Positions 1 to 64,000 of a DNA stretch of 64,000 bases are shown one piece after another; the stretch's first letter is position 1; every line of letters begins with the position of its first letter. Where the stretch lies: the NCBI GenBank assembly GCA_030123605.1, contig CP126123.1, forward strand, positions 1 to 64,000. The letters are read 5' to 3'. Position numbers and translations under genes: made by a program. The notes below the pieces were generated by a model. That model saw only the letters and a list, made by a program, of their open reading frames with translations, did not search any database and was not told the origin of the DNA. Source of the stretch: Nitrospira sp. Its GTDB lineage: Bacteria; Nitrospirota; Nitrospiria; Nitrospirales; Nitrospiraceae.

Positions 1-672
1 GAAGAAGCGTTCCGACGGCTTCCTTCAAACGTGCGCGTCAATTGGCCGCAGGACAACATCTCTCTGTACGATCTGGCCAACGAGACATCCGTGTTTCTAA
101 ATGCCTGGTCGAGTGCAGGAAAGGAAATGAGTTTGCTTGGATTGCCGGTCGTGATTTACTCGCCGCAGCTCATCTACTATCCTTCGGATCTCAACTATGT
201 CGGGACGAGTGAGCAAGAGTTTATCGCGCGGATTGATCAGGCGCTTCGAGACGGATGGAGCATAGAGCGAAGTCGGACAACGTACCGCTGGTTGGCCGTA
301 GAGTATGACTATAGCTTGATCGACATCACCGACGGGTATTCGCCGCAGGATGAGCCGACACGATGGTCGCTTCGAGGGATCAGCAACCGTGTGAAACGCC
401 GGGTGATCCCACTATATCAACAGACTCAAGACTGCTCACGAAGAACTTCATTGCGGTCTTCGCACACAATCGATGCCATATTCCGCCGTGGCGCTGTCAC
501 ACCGTTGGATTCACATGTGGGGAAAACCCTTCCCGATATTTCTCCGGCGGAAGAGGACAGGGCTCTCCGCTTTGAATTGGGCAGGATTGGACGAGCGCTC
601 TTCGGCTCGGACGGCCTTCACGGTCCGAACACGCTCGCGGGTCGATTGCGAAGTTTGAACGTTGAGTCGTGA
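1..672 (+). CDS. Capsule-type polysaccharide glycosyltransferase, C-terminal part (truncated by window edge)
   Basis: The reading frame is open to base 1, so only the C-terminal ~223 residues are visible. The stretch NVRVNWPQDNISLYDLANE, followed by a strand and helix ending in GKEMSLLGLPVVIYS, resembles the nucleotide-sugar-binding half of GT-B capsule polysaccharide synthesis proteins. In those, a 'switch to sector' helix is followed by a conserved G-x-P-V. The last ~90 residues are basic and low in homology signal. It begins a + strand series of glycan genes but is separated from the next by about 220 bases in which I see no gene. The family call is moderate and the substrate is unknown. 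Confidence 0.6.
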   Translation, partial: EEAFRRLPSNVRVNWPQDNISLYDLANETSVFLNAWSSAGKEMSLLGLPVVIYSPQLIYYPSDLNYVGTSEQEFIARIDQALRDGWSIERSRTTYRWLAVEYDYSLIDITDGYSPQDEPTRWSLRGISNRVKRRVIPLYQQTQDCSRRTSLRSSHTIDAIFRRGAVTPLDSHVGKTLPDISPAEEDRALRFELGRIGRALFGSDGLHGPNTLAGRLRSLNVES

Positions 673-43673: not shown

Positions 43674-43683
43674 GGTGATCTGC

Positions 43684-43713: not shown

Positions 43714-43739
43714 ATAGCCGGACCGTCCCTCAATTGCAA
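43711..43739 (-). promoter_or_regulatory. Predicted promoter of the abiEi-abiEii-pglZ-brxL segment
   Basis: On the minus strand, TTGCAA (43734-43739) is followed by a 17-base spacer and TATTGT (43711-43716). It lies in the 90-base gap between pglX and abiEi, the only real gap inside the BREX operon. If active it would transcribe the toxin-antitoxin pair and, by coupling, pglZ and brxL. Confidence 0.58.
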
Positions 43740-43763
43740 GATGTGGCGGCACATGACAACCGG

Positions 43764-45722: not shown

Positions 45723-47118
45723 ACCTTTGGCGGGTCACTGCTAATTCATGCCCTGTCTCATCTCCACGCTCATCCTCCCGTTCCAATGCTTTCTGTAGCA
45801 ATGGTCGCAGTTCATGAAACTCGGCAGTGAGGAGATCTCCACCAAAGGTTCTCGGGTTGATGAGGCTCCCCAACGTAGGCCCGTCCTTGAATAACTGATA
45901 GAGTCGCTCCATGCCTTCGCGGAGACGCTGGTTGCCATTCGCAAGCTTCGTCCACGTCTCTAATTTTGTTCGCGGTGCGAGGCCGGAGCAGGCGAGGTTC
46001 AACGGCGGAAGCTTCTGATAGCCGGCGAGTTTCCAAGCGGCAAGCGCGAGGTTAAAGGCCGCAATCTGCGTACAGCGTGGATCCAATTCAAGGCCAAACA
46101 GGTTCGTTCGCAGCACGGCTGTGACGGCCTCTTCCTTGGGTAATCCTTCTTCAGCCATTCGCATGGCCGCAAGGATCGGCAGCTCAGCCACCAGGAAGTG
46201 CCCACTGCCCATGCAGGGATCGAGGACACGGATCTCTTTCGCGGTTTGGGGCCAGCCCTCAAACGTGCCGGCTGCGGGGCGCCAATTGCCTGATTCGTTC
46301 TTGATGAATCGGAGATAGGTCCATTCGATTCCCGGCAGGCCGGCTGCTTGCCTTGCCTCCTCCTCCGTTTGAACCTTGAACGTATTCGGATCTTTTTGAG
46401 CCAGCTTCCCGGCCCACCAGGCGCCGAGCGTGTTGTGCAGGAGAAAGAGGACCATATAATCTTCGGTGAAGAGCTGGGTGACCGGCGCGAGTTCGTCCGC
46501 TCCAATTTTGGTGCCGGACTCGTTCACCTCTTCTTTCCGCTTCGCTTGCCAGAACTGATAGACCCATCCAAGCGAGTCGTCGGCAAGAAAGACTTCTGTC
46601 GGCAAACTGGTGACGAGTTGGAGCAGTGGTTTCCGATCTTCGACGGGGAGGTCAATGTGGCTCGCTGGATCATCTGTACGGAAAATCTCCGGCAATTCGG
46701 TCGCAGCAAACCTAGCCGCCACCGCCCACCCGTCGGGGAGCCCGAGTGCCGGCGGGAGTTCCTCGCAGTCGTGAAACGTCACGGCCACGCCATGTTCGGG
46801 AGAGAGGAGCAGGTTATTCTCGATCAGAAACCGGGCGAAGAGGAGGCGATGCCACTGATCGTACGCGACCTTCTCTTTCAGATGAACAATCTTGTAGGAG
46901 CCCTTCTTTGTACGGCTCTCCTCATCACCCAGTTGCCTGGCCTGTGCTCGCAAGGCTCGCCGGAGTAGGCGTTGCTCTTCACTGAGGTGTTTGTAGGGTT
47001 CCGGTTCGTGGACTGCGAGGGCTTCGAGCGCCTTCCGCGACCCGGTTTCAGCCGTCGCTCGTGCCTGAAGGACAGTTTTGCCCAGCTGTTTGCGAAGTTC
47101 GGAGGAGAGGACCTTCAT
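45601..47118 (-). CDS. pglX: PglX (BREX methyltransferase), N-terminal part up to the frameshift
   Basis: 505 aa, of which about the last 40 are out-of-frame. It includes the helical N-terminal domain and SAM motif I, VLDPCMGSGHFLVAELPIL (about residues 299-315), followed by LFGLELDPRCTQIAAFNLAL, the post-I acidic strand. It lacks the catalytic motif IV, so it would be inactive alone. It overlaps brxC by 4 bases. Confidence 0.85.
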   Translation of the reverse strand: MKVLSSELRKQLGKTVLQARATAETGSRKALEALAVHEPEPYKHLSEEQRLLRRALRAQARQLGDEESRTKKGSYKIVHLKEKVAYDQWHRLLFARFLIENNLLLSPEHGVAVTFHDCEELPPALGLPDGWAVAARFAATELPEIFRTDDPASHIDLPVEDRKPLLQLVTSLPTEVFLADDSLGWVYQFWQAKRKEEVNESGTKIGADELAPVTQLFTEDYMVLFLLHNTLGAWWAGKLAQKDPNTFKVQTEEEARQAAGLPGIEWTYLRFIKNESGNWRPAAGTFEGWPQTAKEIRVLDPCMGSGHFLVAELPILAAMRMAEEGLPKEEAVTAVLRTNLFGLELDPRCTQIAAFNLALAAWKLAGYQKLPPLNLACSGLAPRTKLETWTKLANGNQRLREGMERLYQLFKDGPTLGSLINPRTFGGDLLTAEFHELRPLLQKALEREDERGDETGHELAVTRQRFGPGCRDSREPIHTCRDQCTLPRIQEAGGNPKRVLRASSP

Positions 47119-50100: not shown

Positions 50101-50552
50101 AAGGCCAGGCGTACGTTCTCCATATTGCCGGCGCCGAGCGTTCCAGCAGCCGCCCGTAAGCCGCCATAGGCTTTGCTTCTGTTGCTGAGTTCCGTCAGCA
50201 GGTCGGACACTTCAACGGGAAGTTTGGTCAACGATCGTGCCGTCGCGCCGTCTGAAAAACGATAATCCTCCCATAAGTACCGCAGCATTTTGACTAAGTG
50301 CGATTTGCCGCTCCCGAAGAAGCCGCTGACCCACACAGCCTTTTGCTCCTCGCGGTTCAGGCCTTCCAGATAAGCTTTGAGAATTCGCTCAAGCCCACGC
50401 GCATATTCCCCGTCGCATACGAAGGTTTCCAGCTCGAACCGGAGTGTTTTGACCTGTTCCGGATCATTCTCAATTTCTGCGACCTTTGAGACGCCGTTAT
50501 TGAGCAACTCTACTGTGAGCGGATCACGCCAATAGACTTCGCGGTTTTTCAT
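47115..50552 (-). CDS. brxC: BREX ATPase BrxC (PglY-like)
   Basis: 1145 aa. The P-loop ATPase domain has Walker A GFFGSGKSH (residues 77-85) and Walker B CTLLVVDEVQQFIG (about 255-268). NREVYWRDPLTVELLNNGVSK at the N-terminus and the length match BrxC. The C-terminal two thirds are mainly helical. BrxC is required for both methylation and defence in type 1 BREX. It overlaps brxB and pglX by 4 bases each, so brxA to pglX are coupled. Confidence 0.94.
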   Translation of the reverse strand: MKNREVYWRDPLTVELLNNGVSKVAEIENDPEQVKTLRFELETFVCDGEYARGLERILKAYLEGLNREEQKAVWVSGFFGSGKSHLVKMLRYLWEDYRFSDGATARSLTKLPVEVSDLLTELSNRSKAYGGLRAAAGTLGAGNMENVRLAFLQLVLRSAGLPETLAQARFLLWLSTTGLTRKVEDALKETNRSLRREVRNLKLSTPLAEALLKADPQYGTVPNAQAAIRADFPDSTSPTINESLELIRQVLGNDGELPCTLLVVDEVQQFIGQNIPRAMDVQEIAESCCTKLDRRLLLVGTGQSALNTTPSLQRLQARFAVRVQLSDTDVETVIRKTVLQKRPEREGQIRQNIEANQGEISRHLQNTRLATIQADDPLYVPDYPLLPVRRRFWERVLRNTDQTGTATQLRTQLKIVFDAARETADKPIGTVVPADFIYDQIATDLLNTGQLESEYNKIILEQRDGTAKGELRSRLCALIFLIGKLSRDPGADDGVRATVETLADLLVADLSKDGPTLRQEIPKLLEQLVKDGHVMVVESEYRLQTREGAKWTHDFTRRRTGVLNDEARINARRDELLRDAVEQALRPVSLQHGVSHQVRKLFHELNTLKPTESKEGITLWIRDGWNDEEKAVLNDARAAGTNSPMLFGYLPRLCHEELRQAIASEMAANETLQAHGAVTTAEAIEARKAVETHLAVARHRSKELLGQIVGGAKIFLGGGEEASGVELADKVEQAGTGSLVRLFPKFADADHANWGQVVSRARGGAVDALSQIGYRGETSHHPICRQVFDLVGAGKRGKDIRDYFKSAPFGWPQDAVDGALYTLMVAGNVRATLNGQPVQRDLPQNQVGAASFYVDVPPLNVTQRLDLKALFQKAGVTIRTGGEESSAAAEFLTKLLALAAGAGGEAPCPTVPDTQAVRELQMLSGNAQLLEIHGKKAEIERVITSWKKAGDGIAKRFPAWERLLEFNHFANRLAESKDWASSIEAIIKDRSLLNEPDPVPHLTHTVVQVLRVAITKLQNDMNTAFALGEARLARSDEWKRLKADQRNDLTARFQLMPPAIVPLGSEQDILTALRSSSLSERHNLLDAIPQRFTKALEEAARLLEPTAVRITLPSTTIKNEAELDSWLDDAREQIAEKLKDGPVIL

Positions 50553-51106
50553 GATCTCAAGAAGCTCTCCGTGGTGGTGATGGGGACCGCCATATAGTTG
50601 AAACCGTCCCGCGCGTCCATGAAGCGATAGCTATTGTGTCGATACTCTCCGGGGAAGAACACGAGCAGTCGGCCTCGAATGGCGGCTTCCACCGCATCGA
50701 GTAGGCGTGACACCCGGATGAAGTCAAAGAGGCACCCGAGACCTACCAGCGCCACCACCGTGTTCGAGTCGGCTTCTTCTACAGAGCAGGCCGTCTTGAT
50801 CCGTTCGATGGCGAGCTCTTCCACTTCTTGATGTGCGGTTAAATAGTGAGGCTCGGCGAAGATCCCGTCGCGGTATTCATGCTGCGACAACCACTCGGGG
50901 AGTAGGCGCGTCAAATCAACCACGAGCCAAGAATGCTTGGCTTCCAGTGTGGCTGTTTCGAAATGCTGAAGGTGCGCACGTATGCGCCGTTCCTCGGCCG
51001 GCGGGTAGACCGCGAACCACACCCGTTGTTTCCCAGCCAGGTTCTGCGCCCAAGGCAGCGCCACTTGCCGCTGATAATTTGCGATCAATCGATCAACGGC
51101 ATTCAT
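50549..51106 (-). CDS. brxB: BREX protein BrxB (DUF1788)
   Basis: 185 aa, full length. FDFIRVSRLLDAVEAAIRGR leads to LLVFFPGEYRHNSYRFMDAR and DGFNYMAVPIT, the diagnostic DUF1788 end. The N-terminus has a PWAQNLAGKQRVWFAVYPP segment. BrxB is a small core protein that binds PglZ. Starts and stops overlap both neighbours by 4 bases. Confidence 0.93.
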   Translation of the reverse strand: MNAVDRLIANYQRQVALPWAQNLAGKQRVWFAVYPPAEERRIRAHLQHFETATLEAKHSWLVVDLTRLLPEWLSQHEYRDGIFAEPHYLTAHQEVEELAIERIKTACSVEEADSNTVVALVGLGCLFDFIRVSRLLDAVEAAIRGRLLVFFPGEYRHNSYRFMDARDGFNYMAVPITTTESFLRS

Positions 51107-51891
51107 GGCGATACATGCTCAGTTGCGGGAAAGCCAGGAAAGGTTAACTCCACAATTTCTCCGATTGCTCGCATGGAGAGCAGCCCATGCCGGTGCGCCT
51201 CCATCGCTCGCGTTCTTGCTTGGTCGGCTCCGAGGTCGAGCAGCCTGCACCAGGGGCTTGTAAAGGTAGAGAGCCCGTGGAAGCCGGCTAGGTCGCTGAG
51301 CCACAGAGCCATGGCCACCGCACCGGCTGTCGGCTGCACGCGATGGCGGACCTTCCTGGTTCGGCCACTCAAGTGTCCGGATTGTGTCCATGACGATGCG
51401 GCGTTCCGCGCGATTTTGTTTTGATTCAATTCCGAATACTGGTCAGGAAATGCTTGGGCGACCGCCTGAGCCAACGTCCTTGTGTGGACTTCCGCTCCGA
51501 CAGGAACCGTCAGCACGGCCGGGGTCGTTGCCCGAAACAACGGATCCCTGCCCCAAGCAGAGAGCAGAGCCAGCAATGGAAGCCCTTGCGGATCAGCGGT
51601 ATACAGACGGCGAAGTACGAAAAAGACCGGGACGGTTTCGGATAGTGCATAGAGCTCACGGAGATGTCGGATCGATTTCTGGCGCGTACTTTCCGTGCCT
51701 TTCCGGAGCACGTTGCGTTTCACAACGGCTGATCGGTAACTCTCCGGGTCGGTTCCCATTGGAACAGCGTCTAAGACCGCCTTCAACTCGGTCAACATCA
51801 AGGTGCGGCTGCTGTGCGACCCACCCGCCGTGAATTTGTAGCCCACGTGCGTGAGTGCTTCGCGCTGTTCCGGCGTAACGATGAATTCCAT
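51103..51891 (-). CDS. brxA: BREX protein BrxA (DUF1819), longer than usual
   Basis: About 262 aa from the ATG at 51891, which follows GGAAGG nine bases upstream; the TTG at 51909 is another in-frame start. The central NVLRKGTESTRQKSIRHLRE and LYALSETVPVFFVLRRLY match the DUF1819 pattern, and YKFTAGGSHSSRTLMLTELK is the N-terminal box. Usual BrxA proteins are about 200 aa; the C-terminal ~60 residues here are extra, and the match to the family is moderate. BrxA binds DNA in studied systems. First gene of the BREX operon. Confidence 0.75.
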   Translation of the reverse strand: MEFIVTPEQREALTHVGYKFTAGGSHSSRTLMLTELKAVLDAVPMGTDPESYRSAVVKRNVLRKGTESTRQKSIRHLRELYALSETVPVFFVLRRLYTADPQGLPLLALLSAWGRDPLFRATTPAVLTVPVGAEVHTRTLAQAVAQAFPDQYSELNQNKIARNAASSWTQSGHLSGRTRKVRHRVQPTAGAVAMALWLSDLAGFHGLSTFTSPWCRLLDLGADQARTRAMEAHRHGLLSMRAIGEIVELTFPGFPATEHVSP

Positions 51892-51900
51892 GGTGTGAAA

Positions 51901-51919
51901 CCTTCCCAATATCGGAAGG
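51901..51919 (-). promoter_or_regulatory. Inverted repeat covering the brxA ribosome site
   Basis: CCTTCC and GGAAGG arms are 7 bases apart (51901-51906, 51914-51919). On the transcript the GGAAGG arm nearest the gene is also the brxA ribosome site, so a hairpin would hide it. It could instead be an operator. A TATATT/TATTAT-like -10 lies just upstream but no good -35 is seen. No BrxR-like regulator gene is present upstream. The rest of the gap to 52111 shows no gene and no clear terminator. Confidence 0.42.
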
Positions 51920-52111: not shown

Positions 52112-53827
52112 CTACTCTTCCTTCTTCTCCGCCACATCGAACTCCAATCCGCTCGATTCTTCCCCTCGGCCTGGGCTCTTCCGCCGACCGATCCACAGAT
52201 GCGTCGAGCCGTCGATCCAGCGCGCATATTGATAGGTCCTGGTGACTCGCGCGCCTTCGCGCGGGACTTCCTCTTCGTAGAGCAAGAGTTCGCGGTTCGG
52301 TTCAAGCAATCGACCCTTCGGACGTTGTACGCCTTGAATGCCGCCTTCGCCGAATGCCGGCAGCACTCCGCGCTTGAGCCGCAAGGCGTTGCCGTCTTTC
52401 ACCGGCAGCAACGGAATCCAATAGTCGGGCACCTGGGTGCCGAGCCGGTAGATCAGCGGCGCGCTGTCACTGCCGGCGGCAGGCGAAGGCGGCTGTTCCG
52501 CCAGCGTCTCTTGAGAGGCTTCATGACGGTCTAACGGACGGCCGGCGGCGCTTTCGACCACCCGCTCCACGGCCCAGGCCACGTTGGCCATTTCATCCCT
52601 CAATAACGACAGGTCTTCCACCGGCCGGCTCTCCAACAACGGGCCCAATACCGGCGGCAGGAAGAACAACTGCTGGGTATCGTTCGTGAGGCTGAACATG
52701 CGCCAGGGCGAGTTCGGCCCATCCACATCGGTCGTGTGGGAAATGAGGAACCGTTCGCCGAACGTGTTGGTCACGACGAGCGCACGGACCTGCGAGAGCG
52801 TGCCCACGGAAAGCTCGAGCGGCAACAGGAACCAATCGTTGCTGTATTCCAGCGCAAACTTCACGAGTAGCAGGCGGGCCAAATCTTGCGGCGCGGCCTG
52901 GACGCTTGCGAAATTCACAGCCCCGTCTTCGAATTCCCACAGGCGCGCGGAGGGCATGCCGCGAAACGAGACCGGCGCGGGGAGAAAGGCTTCCGTGAGG
53001 GATGTGCGGCTGTCGGTGGCGCCCAGACCGTTTCCTGAACTCATCGTGAACGAAAACCAGTCCAGCCGTCCATCGAGATACTCCGGAGCGGTCAACACCA
53101 CCTCGCCTGCCGCTGTCTTGCCGGCGATACTCAGCGCGTATTCCATCCGTTCTGGAATCCAGGCAGAAGGGGCGGCGCCTTGTTGGAATAGGCCGTCGAG
53201 CCAGGTCAGCCAGGCGGTGACGATGGCGATTACCTTTGGTTGGTCTCCTGCGACAATCTGATCGAACGGCGCCTCGCGAAATAATTCATTCAACCTGTTC
53301 CCGGCCTGTAACGCGCGGACTCGTGCGGCAAACCGCAGGCCGTCGATGGTGCGACCGGTCAGCACGCGGATGAAGGACAGGCTGGCGGTATCGGTCTCCT
53401 TGGCCTGCTCTTCTGTGGGAGCGGACAGGACGTAGGCGCTCGCCAACCATTGTGCGCGCGTGGGCCCGAGCCTGGCCGTCTCCAGGAGGCGCAGCAGATG
53501 CCGCCCGGATTCGGCGGCCAGCCGCCAGTTGGGGCGCGAGCCGTCCGTCACCGGTTCCGCTTCGACCAGCGTTTCCAGAGCCAACTTGTCGGTTGCATAA
53601 GAATTCGCAGGATGTTGGACGGAACGCGGCCCCGGTTGATAGCGGGTCACAGCGGCCGTATCCACGATCACCTGCGCGACGGCAGGCGAACCGGCATCGG
53701 CCCCGTTGAACTCGCCGAACTGCCATTGGCGTCCCAGCATCCAAAGCGGATCGTGGATGCGCGCCTGCAGCCCGTCCTGCAAGCCTGGATTGTGGGTGCT
53801 GAGGTCGAGTCTGATTCGTGAGGCCAT
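52112..53827 (-). CDS. Uncharacterised protein with DPLWMLGRQWQFGEF motif, giant-protein cluster
   Basis: 571 aa. The N-terminus has RIHDPLWMLGRQWQFGEFNG and ADAGSPAVAQVIV, then helical and beta regions, a LVKFALEYSNDWFLLPLEL strand, GERFLISHTTDVDGPNSPW, and a C-terminal QYARWIDGSTHLWIGRRKSP and GRGEESSGLEFD. These boxes recur in a widespread family with no assigned function, as far as I recall. No signal peptide, no membrane segment, no nucleotide motif. The start ATG is 2 bases after the 1772-aa gene and has GGGAGGGG upstream. It is the last gene of the cluster. Confidence 0.7.
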   Translation of the reverse strand: MASRIRLDLSTHNPGLQDGLQARIHDPLWMLGRQWQFGEFNGADAGSPAVAQVIVDTAAVTRYQPGPRSVQHPANSYATDKLALETLVEAEPVTDGSRPNWRLAAESGRHLLRLLETARLGPTRAQWLASAYVLSAPTEEQAKETDTASLSFIRVLTGRTIDGLRFAARVRALQAGNRLNELFREAPFDQIVAGDQPKVIAIVTAWLTWLDGLFQQGAAPSAWIPERMEYALSIAGKTAAGEVVLTAPEYLDGRLDWFSFTMSSGNGLGATDSRTSLTEAFLPAPVSFRGMPSARLWEFEDGAVNFASVQAAPQDLARLLLVKFALEYSNDWFLLPLELSVGTLSQVRALVVTNTFGERFLISHTTDVDGPNSPWRMFSLTNDTQQLFFLPPVLGPLLESRPVEDLSLLRDEMANVAWAVERVVESAAGRPLDRHEASQETLAEQPPSPAAGSDSAPLIYRLGTQVPDYWIPLLPVKDGNALRLKRGVLPAFGEGGIQGVQRPKGRLLEPNRELLLYEEEVPREGARVTRTYQYARWIDGSTHLWIGRRKSPGRGEESSGLEFDVAEKKEE

Positions 53828-53829
53828 GC

Positions 53830-56800
53830 CTATGCCCCTCCCGCTGGATCGATGACACTTGTGAAGTCGACGGTGCCGCCGGTAAACAACAGTGCCGGTG
53901 CCGATGGGTCCTGCTCACCGGAACCGACCGGCTGCAACGCGCGTTTGCCGGCGCGATCCCAAGTGGCCATCCCGTCGAACAGGGTGAAGGCCATGCCGTC
54001 CACGATCCGTCCTTCGAGCCCCACGGTCGCGGCCGGCACGTCGAGCCGAACCCACCGGCCCGGCGGCGGCAAGGGGCCCATGTACTGGCGGCTCGCGGTA
54101 TTGTCGGTTCCCCACGCAATGAGATTTTCGCCCCAATAGGCACGATGTTCCCAACTGCCGTCATGCCACTGCAGCATGACCTGTCGCGGCATACGCGCGG
54201 GATCGAGGTAGAGATGCGCGAACAGTCGGTCTCCCACGCTGACGAACAGCGGGGCCTTCGCGCCTCGAAAATAATGTTGATGCATGCCGGCGGCAACTAC
54301 CGATTGATGGGCGCGTGTGCCGGACAGCGGTTCCGGCTTCAGGCGAATCCAATTCCAGGTTTCGCCGTCGCCGAAAGGAGCGGCGCCTTCCGGCAGCTGA
54401 TCCTCTACCCAGATCACTTCATCGCCGCTGTCGGGCGCGACGGTGCGGAGTCTCGCCAAGTCCATCGTCTCCTGCAGGACGGCTTCCAGGCTGTTGAGAT
54501 CCCACGTCGTCCGCCGGTCAGCCGGCACGGCGAGCAGTAGCGCCTGCGGCGGCGCGTTATTGGGTTGATCGTAATGAAAGGTCACACCCGTCGTTTCGCT
54601 GGGGCTCGGCACCGTTTCCACCCATTCGTCGATCAAGAGGCCTGCGAAGGGTTGATCGAAGCGGAGCGGTTGCGCCGACGACATCTGCGCCACGAGCGAG
54701 AGGCGCCCGCGTGGAATGGGTTTGTCCGGCGCTTGTGGCAGGGCCACCCAGCGATCCTGCGCCTGAAGGGGGAGTTGTCCGACCTGGAACCGGAGCGTGG
54801 CGTTCCCCACCGTTTCGGCATAGAGCATGGCTTCATTCAGGCGTGTGGCACCAGGCCTGACGTAGGCGGCACGCTGGAACCAGGTGACGGCGGCCATCGG
54901 GTCCTGCCCCTGGAGCGAGAGTCCTGCGGCGAACGTCTCATTCAGTTGCGCGGCATTGGCTGCGGTCATGCGGGGCAGCGCCAGGAAGTCCTGGCCGAAG
55001 ATGATCCGGAGTCGCGCGAGGTCATGATCCCGCCGTTCTTCCGGTGTGGCGTTCGCACGGACAAAGGCCTGGTCGGATTCGGCGACTCGGTCCAGCCGAC
55101 GGTGCGCTTCGAGGAGGACCGACCGTGACTGCGTCAGGAGCAACGACCGCACCTCCGATCCCGTGCCGCCGATGTCCATGGGGGCGGCGCTCGGCATGCC
55201 GAAGCTTGCCATGTCGAACAGGGCGCGGCGAACCTCGTCGAGGTTGGACGTCAGGTCATCCGATGGAGGTGGTGGCAGCAGGCCGTTGAGCCTAGCGCGC
55301 GCGTCGGTCAGGGTTTGCAATGCACGAGCTGCGCGGCCTGCAAACTCTTCATGGTCCAACCCGGAGTCGGCGGGTGATTCTGGCAAAGACAGGTCGCGAC
55401 CGTCGACCGAACGGGCGTTGCTGAGCAGGCGCCGCACCGTGATTGCGACCTCGCACCATTCCGCCACGCTCACGATCTCCGTGCCCCAGCCATTGTCGCG
55501 GCCGAATTGCAATCGAATGACGGCATCCGGCGGCACCGTCGCAGGTCGCGTCTGTTGCAACACGAATCGCCAACGTTGTTCGATTTCGGCCTGCTGTGCC
55601 CGATTGTTGCCTTCGGCCAGGTAGACGGCATCCAGCGGCGCCAGTCCAAGAGACGTCAGCGAGCTTTCGACTGTCTGATAGATCTGGCCGTTCTGTTGAT
55701 TGACGTAGTCGGCTTTGCAACGAACCTGGGCCGGATTGGACAGGAGCGTTGCGACCCATGCGTTGAGAATCGGCTCGGCCTGGGCGCGTGCCGATGGAGT
55801 GGATGTCGGCCATCCTACCGGTGCGGTCCCGTCGGTCGCCGGGAACAGCGTACAGAGGCGATGGGTCAGTCCGATGCCGCTTCTCGGCGTGCGGATCACG
55901 TCCAGCTCCGGCGGCGGCACTTCACCCGCGGCGATGGCATCCAATGTGGCGCCGGAGCGGAGGGGATTGCCTTGAACGAGTTGATACAGACTCTCGGCCA
56001 CGACACTGTCTCCCACGGAATCGACCAGATCATCGAGCGCCGTGAGCGCCTCCACCAGTGCTGTGAAGTCGGGGCTGCCGGGCGGCGGAAATCCCAAGGT
56101 CGTATTGCCGAACGGAACGGTGGTGACATCCCAGGGTGTTTGCGGCGCCTGGCGTTGCTGGCTGGCGGTCCATCGTCGATGCAGGGCCAGCCCGTCCACG
56201 ACGGCGGCAGCCGGCAGCGACTTCAGCGCCCCATTCCATTGCGTCGCGAGGCGGGTGGTCAATGCGGCTCTGGCGGCGATGAGGTCGGCCATGGCCTTGC
56301 CGCGTTGGCCTCCTTCCTTGGCAAGGGCCTGGCGGTCCAGATCGGCGGCGAGCGCATCCTGGCGTGCAGCCATCTGGTGCGCGGCAGGGATCGAATCCGG
56401 ATCGGCGGCGTTGAGCAGCCTGGCCTGGGCCCGTTCCGCGAGCAGACGTGAGCCCTCCCGTGCGCTGACTGTCTGCTGTGCCGCGGCAGCCTGGGCCAGG
56501 GCGGTGGTATGGACCTGGGTCAACTGTTCCACGCGGTTGTCCCAGTCATCCAAATCCCGCGCCTCCAACAATTGAACGGCATAACGTCGAGCCGAAGGTT
56601 GGATCACCTTGCCTTGTGGTTTCGCCGCCTGTTGTTGCGCCAGCACCTGTGCCGCCTGCGTCACCTGTGTCTGCGCGGCCTGTGCCTGTTGCGCAAGCGT
56701 GGCAATCGCGCCCAGTTCGGCGCGATAGGTGTGTTCGCGGCGCTCCCGTTCGGCCTTCAAGCCTCGGGCGTCTTCGGCCCGGCGCAGGGCCTGGTCGCGT

Positions 56801-59148
56801 TGCGCCGTCAGCAGCGTCACCTCCTGCGTCAGCCGTTCAGCCTGCGTGACGGTGTTTCGGATGTCGGCGAAGCGGTCCGTGCCGGTGAAGCTCGTGAGGG
56901 CGCGGAAGCGTTGGATGTAGCGGTCCAAGCCGCGTTCGTGGAGACGGCGTTCGAATCGATACCCGAGTAGGGCGCTGAGGGACTGACCCTGGCGCACGCC
57001 GTCGAGCAGCCACTTGGCGCGATGAACCCGTTCGGACGACAGGTCGACGGCAAAGGGTGAGGTGCCGGACGGACGACTCGACTCCTGCGACAGGTAGCCG
57101 CTTCGCAACACGGCTGCCGCCGCCGCATGCCCCAGTGAGGGCGCATGGACGAATCCCTTGTTCTGCGCTGAGCGCGAGACCGGCGCCGTGACCCCGGACG
57201 GTGGTGCGGACACTGGTTGTAACGGGGCCGCACGCCGGACCTGTTCCACCCAGCCGTAGGCGCCGAGCCTGATGCCGGTGGGCGCCGCCTGCCGCATCAC
57301 GGCGAGCCGTCTGGCTGCGAAGGATGTGCCCCAGGCATCGAGGCGATAGGTGAGCAAATCCATCACCTCTGCGAGCAGTTGTTGCCGAACCGGTTCGGGC
57401 ATGCTCATCAATTCGTCCCATGCAGGCTCGTGCGGTGCCGAGAGCGCGCGGGTCAGCAGCAGCGTCCGGAAGGCCGGAGTCAGCAGCCGTTGCGGCACGG
57501 GCGGTTGTTGATTGGAAACCTCCGGAAATTCGCGCATCGTATAGCGGCAGGCGTTCGCTTCCTGAGCCAGGAGCACGACGGGGTTGGATTCCACCGTGGT
57601 CTGAAGGGCCTGCGGCACCTGACGGCGTCGAGCCGGCCGTTGGGCGCGCCACCAGGCGGCCAGCGCCCTGTCCTGGTCTTGATCGGACGTCGAGGTCCAT
57701 CGGTCGAGCGCCGCCACCGGCAACAGGCCGTAGGGCTGGTTGTCGATACGTAGGACCGGGAGTGGCCCGCGGGCCCGGACGTACTTCGCGAAATGGTCGC
57801 GCAACACCTCCGCACCGGCTGCGCCAAGCAGTTGACGCAGCAGCGGACTGTCGCACAAGGCGAACAGGGCCGCCTGCATGAGCGACGACCGATGCTGTTC
57901 CGTACCGTCGGCTCCACGGACATGGGCAAAGACGGAGGCGGACAACCCCAGAGCTTGTGCCAGCCGATCGCCGTCGGATCCGGGGCGGATCAGCGAGCCG
58001 CCTAGCTCTACGTCCATGCTGCCAGCGGCGTCGCGTTCGGTTGATCGATAGCCGGCGGAGGCTTCCGCGCTGTTGTTCGTCGGCACCAGTTGTTCCACGA
58101 GGGCGAGGCTGCCGGTGTAATGGTGGGCATCGAACAGTCCGACCAATCGGCCGGCCGTGGTCGGAGCGTCCCAGGAGGCCTTGAGGCCCAGCACCACAAT
58201 CCGATCGAACCCTGCCTGGGCATCTTCCTCTATGATGGGAATACGTAGCCCCATCCCGATCGATTCAGCCGTATCGAAATCGGTGATCCACGCCATGCCT
58301 TCATCGACGGGAGGCAGTCCATTGTTGCCGGGCAGGCTCGTGCTGCGCGGGTCCGGTCCGACCGCCACGGTCTCAGGAATTGGATTCCCCCAAGCCGTGA
58401 CGCGGGCCGCATCGCCGCGATAGCCGATAGCGACCCAGCGATCCGGCAGGACCTGCGTGTGGGGAGCGCGCGTCCAGCTGTCGTTGCGTCGCGTGACCGT
58501 TTCTGCTCGTGAGGGATCGAGCAGATGCGCGATCCAGGACGCGCGGGTGGTGCCGAATTGCTCGGTGAGTCGTTGCCAGCCTTGCCTGATCTGTTCTTGT
58601 CGGTCGGTTCCGGCAGAGGCGGCGGCAACATGGGCCCAGAACTCCTTGCCGCGGCGTTCTTCTTCCTCAGTAAGGGCCGGTTCGTGACTGTCGAGATGGA
58701 TGTCGTCCGGATATAGGCGCAACAGAAGGTCGGTGCCCGGTCCTGTCCGTCTTGCCGCAAACCTGGTTTCCATGCGGACTGGGAACAGCAGCAGCGGATG
58801 GGTGGTCGCGACTGTGCCGCTGAGGCGATCCGTCCCGAGGAGGCGGGCGGTCGCGGCATCGCGGGCGACGCGGTGTTCGTCGACTTGTCCCGACAGCGCT
58901 GCAACTTCGGTCTTCTTGCGAGTCACCGCGTCCTGTGCGGCCGTGATCTGGGCGTTCACCCGGGTCAGTTCGGCCTGGTAGAGCGCATGGTCCCTGAGCA
59001 GCGAAGCGAGTCGCCGTTGGGCTGCCTGGGCGCGCGCCACGGCGCGGTCGTGCGCTGTCTGCAACCGGCGCAGTGCGGTGGCCCATGCGCGAAGCAGGGC
59101 CGGCGGAATCCCTCCGGGTATGTCTGGTCCTTCAGTGATCGGCCTCAC
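53830..59148 (-). CDS. Giant uncharacterised protein (1772 aa) with coiled coils and C-terminal jelly-roll-like domain
   Basis: GTG start with AGGA eight bases upstream. Residues about 1-95 are a coiled coil (AHDRAVARAQAAQRRLASLL); about 115-175 have LLLFPVRMETRFAARR and LYPDDIHLDSHEP; about 725-745 have LLGYRFERRLHERGLDRYIQ; about 755-930 are a long Ala/Gln coiled coil. About 1490-1590 have FAGLLIDEWVETVPSPSETT and APPQALLLAVPADRRTTWDL; about 1630-1750 have GDRLFAHLYLDP, LQWHDGSWEHRAYWG and VDGMAFTLFDGMATWD, resembling a carbohydrate-binding or LamG-like jelly roll. No signal peptide. Function unknown. Confidence 0.72.
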   Translation of the reverse strand: MRPITEGPDIPGGIPPALLRAWATALRRLQTAHDRAVARAQAAQRRLASLLRDHALYQAELTRVNAQITAAQDAVTRKKTEVAALSGQVDEHRVARDAATARLLGTDRLSGTVATTHPLLLFPVRMETRFAARRTGPGTDLLLRLYPDDIHLDSHEPALTEEEERRGKEFWAHVAAASAGTDRQEQIRQGWQRLTEQFGTTRASWIAHLLDPSRAETVTRRNDSWTRAPHTQVLPDRWVAIGYRGDAARVTAWGNPIPETVAVGPDPRSTSLPGNNGLPPVDEGMAWITDFDTAESIGMGLRIPIIEEDAQAGFDRIVVLGLKASWDAPTTAGRLVGLFDAHHYTGSLALVEQLVPTNNSAEASAGYRSTERDAAGSMDVELGGSLIRPGSDGDRLAQALGLSASVFAHVRGADGTEQHRSSLMQAALFALCDSPLLRQLLGAAGAEVLRDHFAKYVRARGPLPVLRIDNQPYGLLPVAALDRWTSTSDQDQDRALAAWWRAQRPARRRQVPQALQTTVESNPVVLLAQEANACRYTMREFPEVSNQQPPVPQRLLTPAFRTLLLTRALSAPHEPAWDELMSMPEPVRQQLLAEVMDLLTYRLDAWGTSFAARRLAVMRQAAPTGIRLGAYGWVEQVRRAAPLQPVSAPPSGVTAPVSRSAQNKGFVHAPSLGHAAAAAVLRSGYLSQESSRPSGTSPFAVDLSSERVHRAKWLLDGVRQGQSLSALLGYRFERRLHERGLDRYIQRFRALTSFTGTDRFADIRNTVTQAERLTQEVTLLTAQRDQALRRAEDARGLKAERERREHTYRAELGAIATLAQQAQAAQTQVTQAAQVLAQQQAAKPQGKVIQPSARRYAVQLLEARDLDDWDNRVEQLTQVHTTALAQAAAAQQTVSAREGSRLLAERAQARLLNAADPDSIPAAHQMAARQDALAADLDRQALAKEGGQRGKAMADLIAARAALTTRLATQWNGALKSLPAAAVVDGLALHRRWTASQQRQAPQTPWDVTTVPFGNTTLGFPPPGSPDFTALVEALTALDDLVDSVGDSVVAESLYQLVQGNPLRSGATLDAIAAGEVPPPELDVIRTPRSGIGLTHRLCTLFPATDGTAPVGWPTSTPSARAQAEPILNAWVATLLSNPAQVRCKADYVNQQNGQIYQTVESSLTSLGLAPLDAVYLAEGNNRAQQAEIEQRWRFVLQQTRPATVPPDAVIRLQFGRDNGWGTEIVSVAEWCEVAITVRRLLSNARSVDGRDLSLPESPADSGLDHEEFAGRAARALQTLTDARARLNGLLPPPPSDDLTSNLDEVRRALFDMASFGMPSAAPMDIGGTGSEVRSLLLTQSRSVLLEAHRRLDRVAESDQAFVRANATPEERRDHDLARLRIIFGQDFLALPRMTAANAAQLNETFAAGLSLQGQDPMAAVTWFQRAAYVRPGATRLNEAMLYAETVGNATLRFQVGQLPLQAQDRWVALPQAPDKPIPRGRLSLVAQMSSAQPLRFDQPFAGLLIDEWVETVPSPSETTGVTFHYDQPNNAPPQALLLAVPADRRTTWDLNSLEAVLQETMDLARLRTVAPDSGDEVIWVEDQLPEGAAPFGDGETWNWIRLKPEPLSGTRAHQSVVAAGMHQHYFRGAKAPLFVSVGDRLFAHLYLDPARMPRQVMLQWHDGSWEHRAYWGENLIAWGTDNTASRQYMGPLPPPGRWVRLDVPAATVGLEGRIVDGMAFTLFDGMATWDRAGKRALQPVGSGEQDPSAPALLFTGGTVDFTSVIDPAGGA

Positions 59149-59169
59149 TTCGCTGGTCCTTTCGTTAAC

Positions 59170-59979
59170 TTAGGGGCCATCCTGCAGATGCTGGTTGATC
59201 TCGGCTTCGGCAGTTGCCAGCGCTTCTTGGGCTGTCGCCTGCTGTGCCTGCGCCCCTGGGAGTTGTGCCGCGATCGCATTGAGTTTGGCCGTGAGGTCGC
59301 CGCGTCGGGCAATGAGGTCCGCGAGCAGGGCCTCCGCATCCTCCAGGTCGAACCGCGCCACCAGATGGGATTCCTCCAACGTCGCCGTGCGGGCCGAAAG
59401 TTCCGCTGCGATTTGTTGCAGGGTCGGTCTCACCAGTGGATCGCGGGTAATTTCTGCATTCATACGCTCGATCTCGGTGAGCTTCGCGTGTAGTTCCTGC
59501 CGTCTGGGTTGGAGGGCGGCGATCGCAGTCTGGGTGGCTTGCACTGCGGCTGTCGCCGCCGCAACCTGGCGATCCGCAGCCTGCACCAGTGTCTTGGCCT
59601 GCGCGACGCCCTGTTGCGCTTCGGTGACCTTCGCATGGGCCGCGGTTGCGGCGGTCTTCGCCTGGGCGAGCGTTCTTCGCAGCGCGGTCAGACGCGCTCT
59701 CCAGGCAGCCGGAGGAATGCCGGGAGGCGGTTCGGACGCATCCCGAAGGTTCTGCTCAGCCTCCGCGACCTGTGCGTCCGCTGCGGCGGCCGCAGCCTGC
59801 AGCGGCGGAATGCGTGCCTGGGCCTGAGCCACGCCGTTCTGTGCATTGGTGCGCTGAGTCTGTGCCGCCGTCACCGCCTGCTGCTGCGTGGTAAGGTGTG
59901 CCGTCAAGGCGGCTTGTTGTGCGCCTAAGGCGTGCAGGGCGGCCTGAAGTCGAGCGGTGTCTTGTTCTAAATAGGGCAT
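59170..59979 (-). CDS. Alanine-rich coiled-coil protein of the giant-protein cluster
   Basis: About 269 aa from the ATG at 59979, which follows GGAAAGAGA; the longer reading from 60207 runs back into the 869-aa gene and is rejected. Nearly all of it is heptad-like Ala/Gln/Leu-rich helix (LQAALHALGAQQAALTAHLT, and so on). A segment PPGIPPAAWRARLTALRR matches the N-terminus of the 1772-aa protein (GGIPPALLRAWATALRR), showing shared origin. It is probably a scaffold or partner. No signal peptide. 20-base gaps on both sides place it in the operon. Confidence 0.65.
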   Translation of the reverse strand: MPYLEQDTARLQAALHALGAQQAALTAHLTTQQQAVTAAQTQRTNAQNGVAQAQARIPPLQAAAAAADAQVAEAEQNLRDASEPPPGIPPAAWRARLTALRRTLAQAKTAATAAHAKVTEAQQGVAQAKTLVQAADRQVAAATAAVQATQTAIAALQPRRQELHAKLTEIERMNAEITRDPLVRPTLQQIAAELSARTATLEESHLVARFDLEDAEALLADLIARRGDLTAKLNAIAAQLPGAQAQQATAQEALATAEAEINQHLQDGP

Positions 59980-59999: not shown

Positions 60000-62609
60000 C
60001 TATTGTCTGACGGGCAGCCAGGTTCTCGCATGGACCGCCACGCGGAAGGGCGGTTGTCTGGTGATGGCGGCCATATGCGCCGAGTTCTTTCCCCAAGGAA
60101 TCTGATCGACGATGACATCCTTCAACAGGCCGTCGATCGGCACATACACGATCTGTTTCAGCGCGGCTTCGTCTTGCGCCAGGTGACCCCACGTCAGGTC
60201 TGGCCAATGGGCCGGCGTGCCGCCGTAGGTCGTGGCGACGTCCAGGCCGAACCGCGGCTCTGTCGGCTGTTCCTGCAACACGAAGAACCAGCCCGGGTGT
60301 CCTCCGGCTTTGTTATCGGCCCCGCGCACGTCCGCTTCGGTCAGCGGAAAGCCGAGCATGGTGATGTCCGGTGCCTGGGTCGCACGAAAAATGGGATAGC
60401 GTTCCGTCGTACCCAGCTCTCGCCTGGTGCCGTCCGGCGACCAGACACTTTCGAGGGCATAGACCATGGCTCGCGGGTAACGCCGCAGGAGGTCGCCGCG
60501 GATCAGGAGCACCAGCTGTCCGACCGCCGTACCGCGAGGACTATGGTTGCCCAGGCGGCTGTCGGTCGGCCAGGCGGTGATCCGGGCGATGTCGAAACGG
60601 GATTCGCGCTCCGCGTCGGTGGTTGGAAGTTCATCTCCGCCGGCGTCCCAGAATTGTCGGAAGTAGGTGCCGCGCTGATCGGTCGGAAATCCACGCCAAA
60701 GCAGCTCGCGGCTCATCTCGTGGTTGAGCCCGACCATGTAGGCCTCGATCAACTCGGGATTGGTTTTCAGGAGCGCAATCGTATTCGACGGCACCTGATC
60801 CATGCCGGGCAATAGCATGTCTGGTGCGTAGTCGCGCAGAGGTTCATACATCGGCTGCGGGAAGCTCGGCGCGAATGCCGTCAACTCGGTGTTCTCGACG
60901 GTCGGCATCGTCCTCCGCACCGCGGCCAGTACCGCATCTTTCGGGGAGAGGCGCCGCAGCACCTCCGCTTTCACCTCCGACCATTCGCGCAGTGCCGGCA
61001 CCTGCCGCTGCTTGGTGGCGACGGCGAATTGCATAAGCGGGCGAAAGGCCTGCCCCGCCGCGGAGGCGGGCGACGTGGGGGGGAGCCGAAGCGCGTCAAA
61101 TGCGGCGGCGTGGGAGGCGATCGGTCCATTCACTCGAGTCAAGCGGCGGAAGGCGCCGGTCACAGCCGGATGACCGGCAAGCAGGTTGCTGCTCTCCATC
61201 GCCGGCGTCGATGACGTGGCGAGGCCTGTCAGGGCCCGGAGCGCCGGTCCCGTGAGTTGCAGCAGACCGGCCGGGTCGAGCGCCGCGAGGTGTTTCTTGG
61301 AGAGGCTGTCTCCGACCGCCTCGGCCAACTGCGCACGCTTGAGCCGCTGCCGGTCCCGTCGTTGTTGTTCCAGTTGATCCCAGGCCGAGGCCATCAACGA
61401 CTCCTGCTCGTTGCGGATCACCATCGTGCCGATGCCGGCGGCGATGCGGTGGCGCGGATCCAGATTCAGATCGCGGAACCAGTGCGGCGGTTGGTCGGCG
61501 GGCGGCAGGCTGTCCCGGTCTACGTACCATTGCCCATAGAGCGGCGGACCGAGGAGGGCGAGGGCTCCGCTCGTGCCGGCCATGGCTGCCGGGGCGTTAA
61601 GAATGGTGCCGAGCGCCTGTTGAAACGTTTTGCGTGGTTGATCGGGCCAGGCACGCGGTTGCGTCTCGGGAGTCTGCAAGGCTCCACCCAGATCCAAGAG
61701 GCTGCCCGGTGCGCCGACCGGCAAGGTCGGCATACCCCAGCCGGGGGTTCGGATGTCTACTGGCCGCAAGCCCACGGTGGACGGCAGGGGCTCGGCTTTC
61801 AAACGGCGCGCGAGCGATTCGAAGTCTCCTGCGAGGCCGGTTCGAAACTCCCACTGGAAATAGACCGGCAGCGTGACCGGCTCGGACGGGGCGGTCTTCG
61901 TCCATGCGGGTTTCAAGGCCTGTTCGTCTTCCGGCTTGATCGGCTCGCCCAGGCCGGCTTTCCTTCCCACGTCATAGGTGGGAACGAGGCAGGCGTAATA
62001 GGCTGTGTTGGGATCGAGTCGGCGCGGAGCCACCAGCCGCGAGAGTGTGCGTTCCGGATGGTCGTTAAGAATTTGCTGCAGCGTCGCGCGCGGCGAGGGA
62101 TCGGGCGTCGAGCGTTGGCCTGCCACGATTTGGGCATGGGCCCAAGCCCATGACTGGTCGAGGTCCGGCAAATCTTCCAGGACGCAAGTGATCGTCGGCA
62201 AGGGCCGCTGCGGGTTGGTCTTGAGAGTCGCCCGTTCTTTCGGGATGACGATCAAGCAGATCCAGGGACGGAGGCGCCGCGCGGTATCTGCCGCCGCCGG
62301 GGTGAAGAGCCATGGAAAATCCGGGCGATCGAATTCGATGGCCGGAAAATAATTCGGTTCGAAATCGGTCATGTGGGCATGGGGTTCCGTGCGAATGATC
62401 TCGCGCGCGTCGAGGCCTGTGATGTCGCCGGGGCCGTAGAGTTGTACGTTGACTTCGAGAGGCGCGCGGTCGTTCACTCGAAGCCGAACGGGCAGCGCGA
62501 GGCGTCCCGCCGTGGGCTGGCTGGAGGCGCCGGGGTCGGAGAGGCCCGCGAGGAGTCCTTGGCGGAGCCAGGAATAAAAGCGATAGGTGGCTGCGGTCGG
62601 TTCAGGCAT
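60000..62609 (-). CDS. Uncharacterised large protein (869 aa), giant-protein cluster
   Basis: ATG with AGGA nine bases upstream. Boxes: YRFYSWLRQGLLAGL at residues 9-23, VQLYGPGDITGLDAREIIRT, TDFEPNYFPAIEFDRPDFPW then LFTPA at about 80-105, GLNHEMSRELLWRGFPTDQR then GTYFRQFWD at about 630-660, and YPIFRATQAPDITMLGFPLT and GWFFVLQEQPTEPRFGLD near 745-820. These look like a conserved family, but I know no function. It has no signal, no membrane segment, and no catalytic motif I can name. The high conservation of aromatic boxes hints at a structural role. Confidence 0.7.
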   Translation of the reverse strand: MPEPTAATYRFYSWLRQGLLAGLSDPGASSQPTAGRLALPVRLRVNDRAPLEVNVQLYGPGDITGLDAREIIRTEPHAHMTDFEPNYFPAIEFDRPDFPWLFTPAAADTARRLRPWICLIVIPKERATLKTNPQRPLPTITCVLEDLPDLDQSWAWAHAQIVAGQRSTPDPSPRATLQQILNDHPERTLSRLVAPRRLDPNTAYYACLVPTYDVGRKAGLGEPIKPEDEQALKPAWTKTAPSEPVTLPVYFQWEFRTGLAGDFESLARRLKAEPLPSTVGLRPVDIRTPGWGMPTLPVGAPGSLLDLGGALQTPETQPRAWPDQPRKTFQQALGTILNAPAAMAGTSGALALLGPPLYGQWYVDRDSLPPADQPPHWFRDLNLDPRHRIAAGIGTMVIRNEQESLMASAWDQLEQQRRDRQRLKRAQLAEAVGDSLSKKHLAALDPAGLLQLTGPALRALTGLATSSTPAMESSNLLAGHPAVTGAFRRLTRVNGPIASHAAAFDALRLPPTSPASAAGQAFRPLMQFAVATKQRQVPALREWSEVKAEVLRRLSPKDAVLAAVRRTMPTVENTELTAFAPSFPQPMYEPLRDYAPDMLLPGMDQVPSNTIALLKTNPELIEAYMVGLNHEMSRELLWRGFPTDQRGTYFRQFWDAGGDELPTTDAERESRFDIARITAWPTDSRLGNHSPRGTAVGQLVLLIRGDLLRRYPRAMVYALESVWSPDGTRRELGTTERYPIFRATQAPDITMLGFPLTEADVRGADNKAGGHPGWFFVLQEQPTEPRFGLDVATTYGGTPAHWPDLTWGHLAQDEAALKQIVYVPIDGLLKDVIVDQIPWGKNSAHMAAITRQPPFRVAVHARTWLPVRQ

Positions 62610-62629: not shown

Positions 62630-64000
62630 TTACAACCTGGCTGTTGTTGCACTCACCCGTCGTCGTTTGCGCGCGGGGGCCTGGCCGGCGGCGCCGAAGG
62701 GGGCGACCCGGGCCAGCACGGCCGCCGAGAGCACATAGCCCGGCTTCGGCCGCTCCGGCGGCCGCGTCGGATCAAGCAGGAGCGTCTCATAGGCAATCGG
62801 CGCCGCGAGGCCCAGCTCGTCGTCTACGGCGAGATCGTCCGCCGCCAGGGTGAGGCCGCCGTCGAGTGGCATAAAGGCCGGCTGCGCCAACTGCTCATCC
62901 TCCCGCAGGTCCTCGAACTGGGCCAGGGCGAAGGGCTCATGCACCGGCGTCGTGCGCCAGGGGGAGGCCCCGGCGCGATCGGTCACCGAGACCGTCACCG
63001 TCGTGGGCCCGCCGACCAGCGGTGCGGTGCCCAGCTTCGTGAATCGTCGGTTCAACGGGGCAATCCGCTCCCGCACCGTCAGCTCCGCCCAGGGATGCAC
63101 CCGCAGTCCGGTGGGTGGTGGGGTGGTCTCTCTGATGGTCACGACGGGCGCACTACTGCGGGGCACCGTCCCGTTCCAATTGCGCTGGTCGGCCAGGGCG
63201 GCGGCGATCAAGCTCACCACATCCACGGCCGCGGGGAGCGGCGGGGCAGCCTTGCTCCCGAAGGTCCGTGAGAAGGACACCGACACCGAGAAGAACAGAA
63301 TCTTGATCTTGGCCTTGCCTTCCACGTGCCAGGGCGTGGGCCCGGCTAATCGGCCCTTGAACGAGATGCCCATCAATAAGCGGCCGTGATAGCGCAGGGC
63401 CAGCGCGGCGCCGACCTCCACCTCAAAGGCCAACGGAGTCAATTGGATGAGCGCATCGAAGCCGAGCATCCCGTCGAAGCTGAAGCCGCCGCCGGCTGCA
63501 TGCAAATCTACTCGAGCGCCGAACTGCACCGTATTGGAGGTGACCGCCAGATAGGCCTGACAGCGCAACTGGAGCGAGTCGCCGTCGGCCAGTTGCAGGG
63601 CCAGTCGCTTCAAGGCGGGCAGGCCCGGTGGCGCGGCAAAGCGGGGATGGAAGCCGCCGATCGCCAGCACAAATTGTGGCTCTCGGCCCCAGCCCGCGCG
63701 CAAGGCCATGTCGCCGGTCAGGGTGAATTGCAGGATGCGTGACTCATAGAGCGTCGCATCCAACGCCACGGTCTCGGCACTCACATCCAGCACACCCAAG
63801 GCATCCATGCGAATCTGGATGAGCGGATGGGTCTGGTTCGGCAGCAGGACTTGCAAGCGACCGAGCACGATCATCCGAACGGGGCTGGGCAGTTCGACCA
63901 GCAGGGCCAGGTCGAGCGTGAGCAGGGTCGGCGTGCCCCAGCGCAGTTGCACCATCGGGCCGAGCACATGGCGGCCCGCCGTCGGGGGGAACACCCGGCG
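62630..64000 (-). CDS. DUF6603-like protein, C-terminal part (truncated by window edge)
   Basis: The frame is open to base 64000, so about 456 C-terminal residues are seen. IQIRMDALGVLDVSAETVAL, LTGDMALRAGWGREPQFVLA and IGGFHPRFAAPPGLPALKRL, VTSNTVQFGARVDLHAAGG, and LAGPTPWHVEGKAKIKILFF are boxes I associate with DUF6603 proteins. The pattern is alternating hydrophobic residues, a long beta-strand array. The C-terminus is basic (ARKRRRVSATTARL). This is the first gene of the operon visible here; the rest lies beyond the window. The name is from memory and should be checked. Confidence 0.62.
   Translation of the reverse strand, partial: RRVFPPTAGRHVLGPMVQLRWGTPTLLTLDLALLVELPSPVRMIVLGRLQVLLPNQTHPLIQIRMDALGVLDVSAETVALDATLYESRILQFTLTGDMALRAGWGREPQFVLAIGGFHPRFAAPPGLPALKRLALQLADGDSLQLRCQAYLAVTSNTVQFGARVDLHAAGGGFSFDGMLGFDALIQLTPLAFEVEVGAALALRYHGRLLMGISFKGRLAGPTPWHVEGKAKIKILFFSVSVSFSRTFGSKAAPPLPAAVDVVSLIAAALADQRNWNGTVPRSSAPVVTIRETTPPPTGLRVHPWAELTVRERIAPLNRRFTKLGTAPLVGGPTTVTVSVTDRAGASPWRTTPVHEPFALAQFEDLREDEQLAQPAFMPLDGGLTLAADDLAVDDELGLAAPIAYETLLLDPTRPPERPKPGYVLSAAVLARVAPFGAAGQAPARKRRRVSATTARL

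What the first reader, a model, noticed from the sequence alone, without database searches (positions are those of the whole stretch)
58860..59979. Shared coiled-coil motif between the 269-aa and 1772-aa proteins
The 269-aa protein has GIPPAAWRARLTALRR and the 1772-aa protein begins with GIPPALLRAWATALRR, each followed by an Ala-rich heptad region. Two neighbouring genes carrying the same helix start suggest duplication, or a pair designed to assemble through the same interface.
Basis: seen in the sequence. Interest (0 to 1): 0.55.

Follow-up and report, generated by a model that had tools for sequence, protein, structure and literature searches.

The report
Coiled-coil partner of a giant protein
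Two neighbouring genes of a Nitrospira-type bacterium share a short helix-start signature; it does not look like a duplication, but the two proteins always occur together and may zip up through another part of their long helices, inside a large and apparently unstudied protein system.

Summary
In detail: both motifs are where stated (12 of 16 residues identical; next best in 406 background ORFs is 8 of 16). The duplication reading fails. In the 19 other gene pairs compared, the two sites agree in only 2-8 of 16 residues; only the window's own C reads GIPPA where 17 relatives read RVPPA. Matched residues share codons as often as chance predicts (4 of 12, expected 4.2). The motif is a proline cap at the start of a long helix. 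The 'pair that assembles' reading survives in changed form. B (269 aa) is present in exactly the 19 of 295 Nitrospirota genomes that carry the arm-bearing 1772-aa C; B-less C relatives lack C's 200-aa inserted hairpin. A single-chain proxy model pairs B's third helix with C's N-terminal helix, the segments that also co-diverge most (partly explained by linkage). Both sit in an operon whose DUF6603-A-C-D core recurs in Streptomyces, haloarchaea and Rhizobium. Contact is predicted, not shown.

The parts
59170..59979 (-). Gene B, 269-aa all-helical coiled-coil protein
   Evidence: ORF; 20 orthologues of 269-272 aa, gaps only at the C-terminus; AF2 three long helices, pLDDT mostly over 90
59740..59967 (-). 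B helix 1 (aa 5-80, break at 56)
   Evidence: AF2 secondary structure
59446..59712 (-). B helix 2 (aa 90-178); begins at the second Pro of GIPPA
   Evidence: AF2 secondary structure
59674..59721 (-). GIPPAAWRARLTALRR motif of B (aa 87-102): turn and helix cap
   Evidence: GIPP in 18 of 20 B orthologues, WR in 20 of 20
59179..59430 (-). B helix 3 (aa 184-267); predicted partner of the C N-terminal helix
59157..59162 (-). AAAGGA, ribosome-binding-like site 8 nt before the GTG of C: C is a separately started gene
   Evidence: read by eye: AAAGGA in 17 of 20 B-C junctions, GAAGG in the other 3
53830..59148 (-). Gene C, 1772-aa protein
   Evidence: ORF; orthologues in 18 other genomes: 84-88% identical in 14, 60-70% in 4
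59065..59112 (-). GIPPALLRAWATALRR motif of C (aa 13-28): helix cap; relatives read RVPPA
58837..59103 (-). C N-terminal arm, one helix (aa 16-104)
   Evidence: AF2: 16-103 in C(1-1200), 16-104 in the B+C proxy
56221..56877 (-). C mid arm (aa 758-976), helical hairpin inserted at one site
   Evidence: AF2; 243-248 aa between LLGYRFER and VVDGL in 3 B-bearing C, 39-44 aa in 9 of 9 measurable B-less Nitrospirota C
53833..54378 (-). C C-terminal extension (aa 1591-1772), missing from the 8 B-less relatives aligned
   Evidence: alignment A1
60000..62609 (-). Gene A, 869 aa, conserved neighbour
52112..53827 (-). Gene D, 571 aa, conserved neighbour
62630..64000 (-). DUF6603 protein gene (runs on to 65914 of the contig)
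   Evidence: Pfam PF20248

Best explanation
B is a dedicated, probably non-enzymatic coiled-coil subunit of whatever complex the A-B-C-D operon builds. It folds as an antiparallel hairpin (helices 1 and 2) plus a third long helix that has no partner inside B. That third helix pairs antiparallel with the 89-residue N-terminal helix of C, giving two hairpins of about the same length (76-89 residues per helix, roughly 115-130 A by the usual helix rise); the hairpin inserted in the middle of C in the same lineage would be a further part of the same strut. The shared [IV]PPA sequence is a proline helix cap that starts the second strand of each hairpin. It marks equivalent positions; it is not the interface and not the trace of a duplication. 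Shown: the sequences and the co-occurrence. Predicted: the helices. Inferred: the contact, the strut and any role in the complex.
For: Co-occurrence: an HMM of B hits 19 of 295 Nitrospirota genomes, exactly the 19 in which arm-bearing C was found (in one of them split over two contigs), B lying next to C; 9 further genomes with other C relatives, and a second C locus in G094, have no B. Mid arm only in B-bearing C. B length fixed at 269-272 aa. AF2: helices B 5-80, 90-178, 184-267 and C 16-104, pLDDT mostly above 90 in the B+C proxy; the C arm in C(1-1200) has block pLDDT 42-70. VIA-align rows that run from B helix 3 into the C arm on one chain: 9nn1_M, 199..383, 156 residues, 3.3 A, Z 7.8; 5d80_G, 199..384, 160 residues, 4.9 A, Z 9.8; others stay within B helices 1-2: 6ewy, 2..185, 184 residues, 3.6 A, Z 11.0. 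Co-divergence: B helix 3 and C arm have the highest partial correlation of amino-acid distances, 0.72, of 15 segment pairs (next 0.53); of 186 evenly spaced window pairs only 1, an overlapping one, is higher (mean 0.37, sd 0.13).
Against: The proxy is one chain with an 8-residue linker, made by reading the natural stop codon as Gln: the linker alone can favour the hairpin. pTM is only 0.54. No control model of the C arm alone was possible (2 of 2 jobs used), so the rise in pLDDT may come from the shorter construct and other alignment. Synonymous distances of the same two segments also correlate (0.52; window mean 0.24, sd 0.18), so linkage explains part of the co-divergence. The co-occurrence may reflect a single ancestral event. 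Helical-looking N-terminal extensions of C occur without B in L044, L045, L075, L076 and in the broken C of L043, so the N-arm by itself does not need B. VIA Z values are in the range that helical bundles reach by common arrangement.
Confidence: 0.45

Rival explanations
1. The likeness is a coincidental, partly convergent helix cap: Ile/Val-Pro-Pro-Ala is a common way to start a long helix, and both proteins are Ala/Arg-rich coiled coils. B and C work in the same operon but do not touch through these helices.
For: Only the window's own C has the close likeness; other pairs match in 2-8 of 16 residues. Codons agree by chance only. A similar SIPAA starts another C helix at aa 919-923, and 12 of 39 predicted C helices have Pro at or next to their first residues.
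Against: B and arm-bearing C are always found together; predicted helix pairing; highest co-divergence of the two segments. The first half of this rival (a mere cap) is also part of my best explanation; what differs is the contact.
Confidence: 0.35
2. B arose by duplication of the C N-terminal arm (or the reverse), and the motif is the remnant of common descent.
For: blastp E = 0.002 over 76 columns; hhalign prefers the C arm over every other C segment, 25.8-28.8% against 2.5% or less, and over reversed controls; scores above shuffles in all 20 pairs.
Against: Only 22-24 columns align; the motif likeness falls in the most diverged pairs L022 and L024 (3 and 2 of 16); codons no more alike than chance; B has an internal repeat (helix 1 against helix 2, 88%) far stronger than any B-C signal; N-terminal helical extensions of C exist in B-less relatives.
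Confidence: 0.1
3. B packs mainly on the inserted mid hairpin of C, not on its N-terminal arm, because these two appeared together.
For: Mid arm present only in B-bearing loci; B helix 2 and mid arm are the second most co-diverging pair, 0.53.
Against: Not modelled: B was not folded together with the mid arm. The helix 3 / N-arm signal is stronger.
Confidence: 0.15

Closest known systems
Antiparallel coiled-coil hairpins (V1-ATPase chains 9nn1_M, 5d80_G; RipA N-terminal domain 6ewy; Smc arm 5xg2)
   Same: two long antiparallel helices as a stiff rod
   Different: no sequence relation found for C (B was not searched against PDB sequences); Z values in the range of a common arrangement
DUF6603 (Pfam PF20248) neighbourhoods
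   Same: the operon carries two DUF6603 proteins, and a DUF6603-A-C-D-like gene order recurs on Streptomyces, Salinigranum and Rhizobium plasmids
   Different: no B gene is annotated between A and C there; the Nitrospira operon adds B, the mid hairpin and the C-terminal extension of C, plus PhoD-like and subtilase genes
TcA-type toxin subunits (among the top Foldseek rows for C)
   Same: large protein with a long helical part; Foldseek E 0.02-0.5
   Different: in VIA only the helical hairpin around 757-976 aligns; no E under 0.001; no Pfam, NCBIfam or PHROG family on C: a generic coiled-coil match

Membership tests
Paralogous (duplicated) gene pair | clear similarity outside the motif | tested here: not met
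   motif-masked score 60 vs null 43+-7, 12 of 500 shuffles reach it; only 22-24 columns align by profile; codons at chance
Coiled-coil protein (B) | long continuous helices with hydrophobic repeat | tested here: met
   three helices of 76-89 residues; 3.5-3.67-residue periodicity in 8 of 17 windows reached by 20 or fewer of 300 shuffles
Coiled-coil arms (C) | long helices with hydrophobic repeat at aa 16-104 and 758-976 | tested here: inconclusive
   helices predicted; periodicity clear at aa 1-84, but in only 1 of 15 mid-arm windows
Partner pair B-C | strict co-occurrence | tested here: met
   19 of 19 genomes with arm-bearing C have B, and no other of the 295
Partner pair B-C | direct contact | tested here: inconclusive
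   only in a linked single-chain model
Tc-type toxin subunit | shared domains beyond a helical shaft | tested here: inconclusive
   only the helical hairpin aligns; no family hit on C
SMC/Rad50 proteins (B) | ATPase head domains | tested here: not met
   B matches only coiled-coil stretches of such models, far below cut-offs; no head domain in its 269 aa
BREX defence system | A-D match BREX components | tested here: not met
   PADLOC finds BrxA, BrxB, BrxC in the neighbours, nothing on A, C, D and only weak coiled-coil hits on B

The most novel reading that the evidence does not exclude
B is a lineage-specific structural subunit that clips onto a giant scaffold protein by completing a split coiled-coil hairpin (B helix 3 with the C N-terminal helix) and was gained together with a 200-residue hairpin inserted in C, remodelling a widespread, unstudied DUF6603-A-C-D machine of bacteria and archaea.
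Probability: 0.35. Interest if true: 0.5.

Novelty: new variant of a known kind. Interest (0 to 1): 0.33.

Why it matters
The motif itself is ordinary. What may matter is the context: a module (DUF6603, A, C, D) kept together in Nitrospirota, Streptomyces, haloarchaea and Rhizobium with no named function, no solved relative of A, C or D by sequence and, in one full-text search for 'DUF6603', no paper in the library. B and the arms it occurs with give a concrete handle: a small soluble coiled-coil protein with a predicted binding site on a giant partner, easy to test.

Tried and rejected
Pfam, NCBIfam, PHROGs and PADLOC on B gave only coiled-coil matches, below the curated cut-offs where these exist; on A, C and D nothing. 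PDB sequence search with profiles of C, D and A: best E 0.72, 0.11 and 0.55, rejected as chance. Foldseek on C(1-1200) in the PDB, and on the proxy in the PDB and in BFVD: 0 matches at E <= 0.001 each. Presence in viruses: no relative of D or B confirmed in viral contigs (27 and 114 pattern stretches); one D-like hit in an unverified 'Bacteriophage sp.' faecal scaffold is not taken as evidence. The 156-aa 'gene' between A and C of L043, first taken for a B analogue, is the front of a broken C. Literature, search listings only, no paper opened: 'DUF6603' 0 papers; Nitrospira, coiled-coil, subtilase, PhoD, 3 of 4 terms; Nitrospira and BREX; coiled-coil, hypothetical gene cluster, Streptomyces, haloarchaea, PhoD, 4 of 5 terms; nothing on this operon seen.
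Full report
What is there. The window is bases 1-64000 of a 4.3-Mb single-contig genome; the nearest named relatives of C are Nitrospira MAGs. On the minus strand lies an operon: PhoD-like protein (797 aa; PhoD match just under the curated cut-off), DUF6603 (1084 aa), S8 subtilase (871 aa), DUF6603 (1094 aa), A (869 aa), B (269 aa), C (1772 aa), D (571 aa). No Pfam, NCBIfam or PHROG family covers A, C or D. BREX genes follow downstream.

The motif is real in this genome. B aa 87-102 and C aa 13-28 share 12 of 16 residues; in 406 background ORFs the next best is 8. The local score of B against C(1-120) is reached by 0 of 500 plain shuffles and 1 of 500 window shuffles.

It is not conserved as a likeness. 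Twenty distinct B orthologues were aligned (L003 and L004 left out because they lie on the same contigs as L018 and L012): GIPP is in 18 of 20, WR in 20 of 20. In C the same site reads RVPPA in 17 of 20, RVRPA in L022, has no such motif in L024, and reads GIPPA only in the window. Site identity in the 19 other pairs is 2-8 of 16; 18 of 406 background ORFs, B and C included, have a 16-mer with 7 or more. The segment score stays above shuffles in all 20 pairs (z 2.3-6.2; 0-7 of 200 shuffles reach it), as two Ala-rich coiled coils with a common cap would. Profile comparison gives 22-24 columns at 25.8-28.8% for the C arm; the 8 other forward segments give 0.1-2.5% and the 10 reversed ones 0.1-1.0%. 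Codons at the 12 shared residues agree 4 times, 4.2 expected. I therefore reject recent duplication and conversion, and think old common descent unlikely. Against me: all four changes of the own C within the 16-mer go to the B residue.

What the motif is. In the AF2 model of C(1-1200) (20 rows, mean pLDDT 68, pTM 0.49) the N-terminal helix is 16-103 and begins at the second Pro of IPPA, though at low local confidence. In the B+C proxy B helix 2 is 90-178 and also begins at the second Pro. 12 of 39 predicted C helices carry Pro at or beside their start, among them SIPAA at 919-923. That proline is favoured in the first turn of helices is recalled textbook knowledge, not a call.

B and C belong together. 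A B profile hits 19 of 295 Nitrospirota genomes at E <= 1e-12. These are the same 19 in which C was found with its arms. Nine other genomes and a second locus of G094 have C relatives without B; the 8 of these 10 that were aligned are 30-42% identical to C. Between LLGYRFER and VVDGL there are 243-248 aa in the 3 B-bearing C measured and 39-44 aa in 9 of the 10 B-less Nitrospirota loci; the tenth (L043, broken C) could not be measured. The N-terminal arm is less exclusive: L044, L045, L075 and L076 have N-terminal extensions of 71-112 aa without an annotated or found B. The B-C junction keeps a stop, a short gap (13-27 nt in 17 of 20 loci; 62, 80 and 204 nt in the others) and an AAAGGA or GAAGG site before the GTG (ATG in L024); the two genes are in the same frame in 11 of 20. 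They are two genes, not one protein with a leaky stop.

Contact. No separate-chain modelling was available. I folded B, the stop read as Gln, seven linker residues and C(1-130) as one chain, with 30 rows, 10 of them paired: mean pLDDT 85.6, pTM 0.54. VIA-align rows include some confined to B helices 1-2 (for example 2..185) and some that run from B helix 3 to the C arm (199..383, 199..384, 182..382) on single chains; many further rows span nearly the whole model at very high rmsd and tell nothing. The C arm rises from block pLDDT 42-70 in C(1-1200) to 78-97 in the proxy. Linker, construct length and alignment all differ, so this is suggestive only. Coordinates and PAE were not given by the tool.

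Co-divergence. Over 19 loci (L023, incomplete, left out), controlling for globular C, B helix 3 and the C arm correlate at 0.72, the highest of 15 pairs (one search gives the same with 0 of 999 permutations reaching it, as do several other pairs). Of 186 window pairs with the same spacing one, an overlapping one, is higher. Synonymous distances give 0.52 for the same pair, so shared history of adjacent DNA is part of it.

The wider module. D has tblastn relatives in 15 of 72,556 plasmid records, among them Streptomyces, haloarchaea, Gemmatirosa and Rhizobium. The four plasmid neighbourhoods opened show DUF6603 followed by large, mostly hypothetical proteins ending in D; in Rhizobium A and C look split in two. 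DUF6603 is in 0 of 14 control genomes. Function remains inferred: probably a large multi-subunit complex, with B as a strut or clip on its largest subunit. No catalytic motif of B was sought.

Verdict. Observation confirmed. Duplication rejected. Assembly as partners plausible (0.45), by a different interface than proposed. Modest interest, mainly for the unstudied module.

Noticed in passing
window 37620-51909: A BREX cassette (BrxA, BrxB, BrxC by PADLOC; BrxL, an AbiEii-type gene and methylase ORFs by Pfam) lies directly downstream of the operon; the methylase looks split in two overlapping ORFs, 45601-47118 and 43764-45722.
   Followed up: partly
L014, between B and C (204-nt gap): A palindromic, MITE-like insert lies between the stop of B and the start of C in G094.
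   Followed up: no
L073-L076 (plasmids of Streptomyces, Salinigranum, Rhizobium): The DUF6603-A-C-D order recurs across bacteria and archaea, with variable lengths and extra annotated domains.
   Followed up: partly
L043 (G133): The C gene is broken into pieces by a frameshift or stop.
   Followed up: partly
C aa 12-28, window 59065-59115: The window's own C has four substitutions inside the motif, each to the residue that B carries, seen together in none of the 18 other loci compared.
   Followed up: partly
L013, L015, L023 (genomes of another genus): Their C is about 86% identical to the window's, as close as within the genus, while at least one same-genus genome has no C: possible horizontal transfer of the operon.
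   Followed up: no
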